Part shown: piece after piece, positions 36,075-37,708 of the stretch
Layout of the letters: each line of letters starts with the position of its first letter
Position numbering within the stretch: position 1 is the stretch's first letter
Source: Alphaproteobacteria bacterium
GTDB taxonomy: Bacteria > Pseudomonadota > Alphaproteobacteria > Ferrovibrionales > Ferrovibrionaceae
Direction: 5' to 3'
Length of the DNA stretch: 64,000 bases
NCBI GenBank assembly: GCA_947473805.1
Contig: CANJGB010000004.1
Span: 1 to 64,000, forward strand
The notes under the pieces: model-generated
The model's database searches: none
Seen by the model: only the letters and a program-made list of their open reading frames with translations
What the model was told of the DNA's origin: nothing
Program-made: the position numbers and the translations under genes

Positions 36075-36740
36075 TCAGGCGATCGACATCGAAATCGCTT
36101 CGCGACCCTTCTGCGTATCGACCACCTTCATGGCGACCCGCTGGCCCTCGGCGATGTCGGTCAGGCCGGCCTTCTGCAGCACCGAAACGTGCAGGAAGAC
36201 GTCCTTGCCACCATCCTCGGCCTGGACGAAGCCAAAGCCCTTGGTGCCGTTGAACCACTTGACGGTGCCATTGAGGTCGACTGCCGTCGACGGATCGGGC
36301 GCACCGCGGCGCTGACCGCCGCCCGCGCCGCCGCCAAACCCACCGCCGCCGCCGCCGAAACCACCGGGACGCGGCGCGGAACGCCGCGGCTCTTCCGTTG
36401 CGGTGCTCTCGTCGACTTCGGTAACGGCCGTGATCTGCCGGCCCTTCATGCCCTGGCCGACATTGACCTTCATCTTGGTGCCCGGCGCGACCGAGTCCTT
36501 GCCGGCGGATTGCAGCACCGCGACATGCAGGAACGCATCGCCCGAACCGTCCGCCAGCTCAGCAAAGCCGAAGCCTTTTTCGGGGTTGAACCACTTGACG
36601 GTCGCATCGACCGTCGGGCCCTCAACCCGGGGGGCATCGCGCCTGGCCGGTGGGCCGGCATTCGGGTTGTAGCGCGGCGAAAACATGTCGTCGTCGAAGC
36701 CGCGCCGCCGCGGCGGCCGGAACTCCCGTCCCTTACTCAT
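36075..36740 (-). CDS. Double-domain cold-shock protein
   Basis: A 221-residue RNA-binding protein with two cold-shock domains: VKWFNPEKGFGF..AFLHVAVL at about residues 47-110 and VKWFNGTKGFGF..VFLHVSVL at about 155-220. RNP1 and RNP2 motifs are intact in both. They are joined by an acidic stretch and a Gly/Arg-rich linker (residues 120-145) likely to be flexible. Tandem CSD proteins of this size are common in Alphaproteobacteria, while most bacteria have single 70-residue Csps. AAGGAA precedes the ATG. The 251 bases upstream have no gene and probably hold a long 5' leader, typical for cold-shock mRNAs. Confidence 0.93.
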   Translation of the reverse strand: MSKGREFRPPRRRGFDDDMFSPRYNPNAGPPARRDAPRVEGPTVDATVKWFNPEKGFGFAELADGSGDAFLHVAVLQSAGKDSVAPGTKMKVNVGQGMKGRQITAVTEVDESTATEEPRRSAPRPGGFGGGGGGFGGGAGGGQRRGAPDPSTAVDLNGTVKWFNGTKGFGFVQAEDGGKDVFLHVSVLQKAGLTDIAEGQRVAMKVVDTQKGREAISMSIA

Positions 36741-36991: not shown

Positions 36992-37282
36992 CTAGCCCTG
37001 TTTGGCGATCGGGCCGTCCGCGTAAAGGATTTTGTCCATATGCCTTGTAAAATTGTCATCGTTCCGGCGCAGCCACTCCAGGGCCATGCAGGCATGCTCG
37101 ATTTCCTCGCGCATGTTGTGCAGCAGAATGTCTTTCAGGGCCTCGTCCTCGCAATCGTCCGCCCGCTGGCGGTACCAGTCCACGGCCTCCAGTTCCTCGA
37201 CCAGCGAGGTAATGGCGTGGTGCAGGGCCAAGGTCCTGTGGGACAGGCGCTCTCGGGGGGCGTGCAGGTTTTCTGAACTCAT
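36992..37282 (-). CDS. Encapsulated-ferritin (EncFtn) homologue without targeting tail
   Basis: A 96-residue ferritin-like protein. EELEAVDWY and REEIEHACMALEWLRRND match the EncFtn family, whose two-helix monomers form annular decamers that oxidise iron inside encapsulin shells. The ferroxidase ligands align with R. rubrum EncFtn at a constant offset of two: E30, E60 and H63, with W36 and Y37 also kept. The protein ends at YADGPIAKQG, where R. rubrum EncFtn continues into an encapsulin-targeting peptide. No encapsulin gene is next to it. The ATG at 37282 is preferred to the GTG at 37300 because it gives the family N-terminus; the GTG follows directly on the stop of the lipoprotein gene. The two genes are likely one transcript. 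Confidence 0.82.
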   Translation of the reverse strand: MSSENLHAPRERLSHRTLALHHAITSLVEELEAVDWYRQRADDCEDEALKDILLHNMREEIEHACMALEWLRRNDDNFTRHMDKILYADGPIAKQG

Positions 37283-37300: not shown

Positions 37301-37708
37301 TTACAACTTGTTGCCGGGAAGGAACGTCAGGACGGCCCGGGCGTCGCTGGTCGCCAGCTGGATCGCATTGCCCATGCGATAGGCAGTGACGCAGGTCGGC
37401 TGGGCGTCGAAATCGACCTGCCATTGCATGCAAAGCTGGCCATCGGGTGTGATCCGCCAGGTGCCGGTATCACGCAGCGTCGCGCTCTTGCCGAACAGGC
37501 GGCCATCGGGGGAAACGTACATCGACCACATCGACATGGTTCCGGTGCGGGTGCCGGTGCCGGTGCTGCCGACGACCATGTTCTGTAGTTCGGGGGCGGA
37601 GAGGCGCATGCCGACCGGATCGGTGGGCTGCGGGCCCAGCGGCGCCGGCGGACCAGCAGCACAGGCGGCCAGCGCCAGACCGGTGAGCAGTGCCAGAAGC
37701 TTGTTCAT
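37301..37708 (-). CDS. Small lipoprotein, unknown function
   Basis: A 135-residue exported protein. A signal peptide with lipobox LALAAC (Cys about 15) is followed by a Pro/Gly-rich linker and a compact beta-rich domain (MSMWSMYVSPDGRLFGKS, TGTWRITPDGQLCMQW), similar in pattern to small DUF-type lipoproteins with WRI..DGQLC motifs. Start 37708 has GAGAGG upstream. It ends immediately before the ferritin-like gene, so the two could share a transcript; nothing in the sequence connects it with iron. Confidence 0.65.
   Translation of the reverse strand: MNKLLALLTGLALAACAAGPPAPLGPQPTDPVGMRLSAPELQNMVVGSTGTGTRTGTMSMWSMYVSPDGRLFGKSATLRDTGTWRITPDGQLCMQWQVDFDAQPTCVTAYRMGNAIQLATSDARAVLTFLPGNKL

What the first reader, a model, noticed from the sequence alone, without database searches (positions are those of the whole stretch)
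36992..37282. Orphan encapsulated-ferritin homologue without targeting peptide or shell gene
The core matches EncFtn down to the ferroxidase residues (E30, E60, H63, W36, Y37, two positions off R. rubrum numbering), yet the protein stops at GPIAKQG, where family members add the peptide that docks them into encapsulin. The next genes are a cold-shock gene and a lipoprotein, with no encapsulin. It may be a free decameric ferroxidase working without a compartment, which would be a different iron-handling mode.
Basis: partly seen in the sequence, partly recalled or inferred. Interest (0 to 1): 0.62.

Follow-up and report, generated by a model that had tools for sequence, protein, structure and literature searches.

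The report
Shell-less short encapsulated-ferritin-type ferroxidase
This bacterium carries a small iron-oxidising protein of a family named for working inside a protein shell, but it has neither the docking tail nor a shell gene; most sampled proteobacterial relatives are the same, so it is a known short form that probably works in the open cytoplasm.

Summary
Window 36992-37282(-) encodes a 96-aa protein of Pfam EncFtn-like (PF22277, E=7.6e-36) with every ferroxidase residue, no targeting peptide (TP) in any frame downstream, and no family-1 or family-2 encapsulin in its genome (95% complete). It is not an oddity. Among 71 Pseudomonadota genomes with a typical EncFtn, tail and shell partition perfectly: 10/10 with a TP have a Linocin_M18 encapsulin gene, and 61/61 without a TP (93-122 aa) have none anywhere in the genome. 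An overlapping set of 80 named loci gives 6 TP+/shell+ and 74 TP-/shell-. The short form is already described as 's-FLP' (type structure 3K6C, a decamer; PMC11202242), in a review that calls it unclear whether s-FLPs are encapsulated and lists a putative TP. The co-occurrence data argue that they are not. Best explanation: a free, metal-assembled decameric ring ferroxidase that oxidises Fe2+ without storing it, passing Fe3+ to other acceptors. Decamer formation, activity and the Fe3+ acceptor are inferred, not shown. This is a new member of a known kind; the broad shell-less distribution is the useful part.

The parts
36992..37282 (-). Short EncFtn-like protein (s-FLP), 96 aa, no targeting peptide
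   Evidence: Translation; PF22277 E=7.6e-36; TIGR04535 103 bits, below its 125-bit cut-off; closest solved structures 5n5f, 7oe2, 5da5, 3k6c
37094..37198 (-). Codons of E29..H63: ferroxidase centre (E30, W36, Y37, E60, H63), entry site (E29, E32) and exit site (H55, E59, E62)
   Evidence: Residues counted in the translation; E29, E30, W36, Y37, H55, E59, E60, E62, H63 invariant in 134 of 134 short homologues examined
36995..37027 (-). C-terminal end LYADGPIAKQG, where shell-bound homologues add a linker and a targeting peptide
   Evidence: Comparison of tails; no TP motif in any frame downstream
37301..37708 (-). Upstream small lipoprotein gene, 18 bp from the EncFtn start; possibly co-transcribed, no link to iron shown
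   Evidence: ORF list; no family hit above cut-off; not found beside the homologues examined
36075..36740 (-). Downstream two-domain cold-shock protein gene, separate (251 bp gap)
   Evidence: CSD PF00313; not found beside the homologues examined

Best explanation
The gene encodes a shell-independent member of the EncFtn family (s-FLP class). Inferred mechanism: two-helix subunits pair through iron to form a diiron ferroxidase centre (E30, E60, H63 of each subunit) and assemble into an open ring of five dimers, free in the cytoplasm. Fe2+ enters past E29/E32, is oxidised by O2 or peroxide, and Fe3+ leaves past H55/E59/E62. With no shell there is no store of its own, so it acts as a fast detoxifying or buffering oxidase, and Fe3+ goes to cytoplasmic ligands or to other ferritin-type proteins such as the Dps encoded elsewhere in this genome. 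Shown: family, intact site residues, no TP, no shell gene, and the genome-wide association. Inferred: ring, activity, Fe3+ fate.
For: EncFtn fold by sequence and by predicted structure. Metal-site residues invariant in 134/134 short homologues, so activity appears to be under selection. 61/61 tail-less genomes lack Linocin_M18 and 10/10 TP genomes have it (Fisher p=2e-12, not corrected for relatedness). 58/61 also lack family-2 shells. 80 named loci: 74 TP-/no shell nearby, 6 TP+/shell nearby. Short-form structure 3K6C is a decamer (PMC11202242). EncFtn without shell is an active ferroxidase that cannot mineralise iron (PMC5012862).
Against: No biochemical data exist for any s-FLP in the sources read. 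PMC11202242 lists the s-FLP C-terminus as a putative, uncharacterised TP. The window genome is 95% complete in 58 contigs, so one missing shell gene is possible for this genome alone. Three gammaproteobacterial-type tail-less genomes outside the class carry family-2 encapsulins, and two genomes with a divergent EncFtn type carry a family-1 shell at a separate site.
Confidence: 0.72

Rival explanations
1. It is a real encapsulin cargo with a non-standard docking end (LFxDKPIAHE / LYADGPIAKQG) that enters a shell encoded elsewhere or of another type.
For: PMC11202242 lists the s-FLP end as a putative TP; 3 of 61 tail-less genomes have family-2 shells.
Against: No family-1 shell in 61/61 tail-less genomes nor in the own genome by two models; the same segment (LFTEGPI) is also present ahead of the linker in TP-bearing forms, so it is part of the core rather than a docking tail.
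Confidence: 0.06
2. It is a relic of a lost encapsulin operon, truncated and on the way out.
For: One short form (L065) sits beside a TP/shell form (L124) on the tree and looks like a recent loss.
Against: Site residues invariant in all short forms; the short form is widespread, including the N. europaea type; no shell next to the named short forms and no remnant at L065.
Confidence: 0.07
3. It keeps the fold and metal site but its main role is not bulk iron oxidation: a metal-dependent sensor, an Fe3+ chaperone, or a peroxide-consuming diiron protein.
For: An open ring cannot mineralise iron on its own (PMC5012862); no conserved iron-gene neighbour; many short tails are His-rich.
Against: The catalytic and transit residues known from R. 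rubrum EncFtn are all kept.
Confidence: 0.15

Closest known systems
s-FLP class, type NE0167 of Nitrosomonas europaea (PDB 3K6C)
   Same: About 95 aa, two-helix EncFtn core, no long tail and no apparent targeting peptide; forms decamers in the crystal (PMC11202242)
   Different: The window protein belongs to a separate LHAPRE-type sequence group, 48-50% identical in fold alignment; its end is GPIAKQG rather than KPIAHE
EncFtn of Rhodospirillum rubrum (Rru_A0973, 5DA5) and Haliangium ochraceum (5N5F)
   Same: Fold, ferroxidase centre, entry- and exit-site residues
   Different: Those carry a linker plus SLGIGSL-type TP and work inside an encapsulin; the window protein has neither tail nor shell gene
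Dps / bacterioferritin / ferritin
   Same: Ferritin-superfamily diiron chemistry
   Different: Closed cages of four-helix subunits that store iron; EncFtn is an open ring of two-helix subunits

Membership tests
EncFtn-like (PF22277) | Profile match above the curated cut-off | tested here: met
   122.2 bits against 27
EncFtn-like (PF22277) | Ferroxidase residues with the EXXH motif | tested here: met
   E30, E60, H63, W36, Y37 present; invariant in the short forms
EncFtn-like (PF22277) | Decameric ring with inter-subunit diiron site | not testable with these tools
   Monomer model only; homologues 3K6C and 5DA5 are decamers (PMC11202242, PMC5012862)
Encapsulin cargo FLP-TP (TIGR04535 ferrit_encaps) | C-terminal targeting peptide | tested here: not met
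   Protein ends GPIAKQG; no TP in three frames downstream
Encapsulin cargo FLP-TP (TIGR04535 ferrit_encaps) | Score above the family cut-off | tested here: not met
   103 bits against 125
Encapsulin cargo FLP-TP (TIGR04535 ferrit_encaps) | Encapsulin shell gene next to it or in the genome | tested here: not met
   PF04454, NF041155 and PF19307 give no true match in the own genome
s-FLP (short FLP without TP) | EncFtn core of about 95 aa without a long disordered C-terminus or apparent TP | tested here: met
   96 aa; definition from PMC11202242

The most novel reading that the evidence does not exclude
Tail-less EncFtn proteins are a large lineage of ring-shaped ferroxidases that never enter a shell and handle iron in the open cytoplasm, possibly with a His-rich C-terminus replacing the docking peptide in many members, so that encapsulin partnership is a minority add-on in Alphaproteobacteria rather than the family's default.
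Probability: 0.5. Interest if true: 0.55.

Novelty: new member of a known kind. Interest (0 to 1): 0.38.

Why it matters
EncFtn has been studied as half of a two-part store in which the shell is needed for mineralisation. A 2024 review leaves open whether short forms are encapsulated. The perfect tail/shell partition across 71 genomes answers this at the genomic level and points to a shell-free use of the same ring, with the unanswered question of where the Fe3+ goes. The shell-less form is common and can be tested with one small protein.

Tried and rejected
Frameshifted or overlooked TP downstream: none in three frames. Hidden shell: PF04454 and NF041155 absent; the weak PF19307 hit is antisense to a CysG-like ORF. 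Conserved neighbourhood: none beyond lineage synteny in at most 9-10 of 88 loci, such as MsrP-like, LysR-like and thioredoxin-reductase-like genes (names by eye); lipoprotein and cold-shock neighbours not found beside homologues. Promoter, terminator and Rfam scans of the region: nothing. Number of gains or losses of the shell: the tree needs 4 changes, but one origin of the TP forms is not rejected (AU p=0.33), so direction is left open.

Full report
Observation. The ORF at 36992-37282 on the minus strand is a complete 96-aa gene starting with ATG. An upstream GTG could add 6 residues, but homologues start at the ATG. It matches Pfam EncFtn-like at 122 bits and, in the PDB, the EncFtn structures of H. 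ochraceum, R. rubrum and N. europaea. An AlphaFold2 model without alignment (mean pLDDT 84) gives two long helices and one short one; its best PDB matches are the same EncFtn structures.

Tail and shell in this genome. The protein ends at GPIAKQG, and none of the three frames downstream encodes a targeting peptide. The genome (3.3 Mb, 58 contigs, 95% complete) has one EncFtn, no Linocin_M18, no NCBIfam encap_f1 and no real family-2 encapsulin; the weak match on C17 is antisense to a siroheme-synthase (CysG-like) ORF. It has a Dps-like protein and a bacterioferritin-like gene that reads as interrupted.

Relatives. I searched PF22277 and PF04454 in the same genome samples: 61 relatives, 289 class members and 397 phylum members. 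Extracted proteins give 71 genomes with a typical EncFtn. Ten end in a TP (SLGIGSL, LTIGRM or FTIGSL type; 126-138 aa) and all ten have a family-1 shell. Sixty-one lack a TP (93-122 aa) and none has a family-1 shell anywhere in the genome (Fisher p=2e-12, which ignores relatedness). Of these 61, three from outside the class have a family-2 encapsulin. Four further genomes carry a divergent tail-less EncFtn; two of them have a family-1 shell at a separate place. Eighty named loci, some from the same genomes, repeat the pattern: 6 with TP (Tistrella, Roseospira, Rhodospira and one MAG) have encapsulin beside them, 74 without TP have none within the stretch held, up to 6 kb a side. So in this class the shell-less short form is the rule. 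The window's family contains Ferrovibrio, since contig length identifies G012 with a Ferrovibrio record.

Selection and tree. E29, E30, D35, W36, Y37, H55, E59, E60, E62 and H63 are invariant in 134 short forms and 16 TP forms examined. On a 145-row tree the window protein groups with Oceanibaculum and Kiloniellaceae short forms. The N. europaea-type short forms branch apart from the LHAPRE-type short forms, with TP forms between and within. The fewest label changes are 4, but with 93 columns most forks are weak and one origin of the TP forms is not rejected.

Function. R. rubrum EncFtn oxidises iron without its shell but cannot mineralise it (PMC5012862). The most likely role here is a free ring ferroxidase that detoxifies or buffers Fe2+ and hands Fe3+ on. 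The ring, the activity and the acceptor are inferred.

What is known. PMC11202242 defines s-FLPs, says they were first classed as non-encapsulated (Giessen and Silver 2017, not read here), notes that 3K6C is a decamer, and calls their encapsulation unclear, listing the end LFTDKPIAHE as a putative TP. The same LF..GPI segment precedes the linker in TP forms, so it belongs to the core and is unlikely to be a docking peptide. The finding is therefore a new member of a described class; the genome-wide partition is the added evidence.

Noticed in passing
L001 and related loci; tails of 111 distinct short forms: Short EncFtn tails are rich in histidine: 83 of 111 distinct tails contain one (about 26 expected at 2.3% His), 9.4% His against 0.8% in the TP-form tails. 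The window protein itself has none in its tail. Could be a metal-binding end; relatedness was not corrected for.
   Followed up: partly
L108 (own genome, G000:C1:320215-320490): The genome's only bacterioferritin-like gene reads as interrupted by an in-frame TAG and a frame change; assembly error or real loss not distinguished.
   Followed up: partly
L065 (G300) against L124: A tail-less EncFtn sits beside a TP/encapsulin form on the tree, with no shell remnant in the stretch held: a likely recent loss of tail and shell together.
   Followed up: partly
L091-L094 (G371, G353, G416, G510): A divergent tail-less EncFtn group (EEAEAISWYEQR) in one genus of another family; two of its genomes have an encapsulin at a distant site, presumably for another cargo.
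   Followed up: no
L112 and about 8 similar loci: In one lineage the short EncFtn is followed by genes that look by eye like MsrP, a LysR regulator and thioredoxin reductase, a redox-repair neighbourhood.
   Followed up: no
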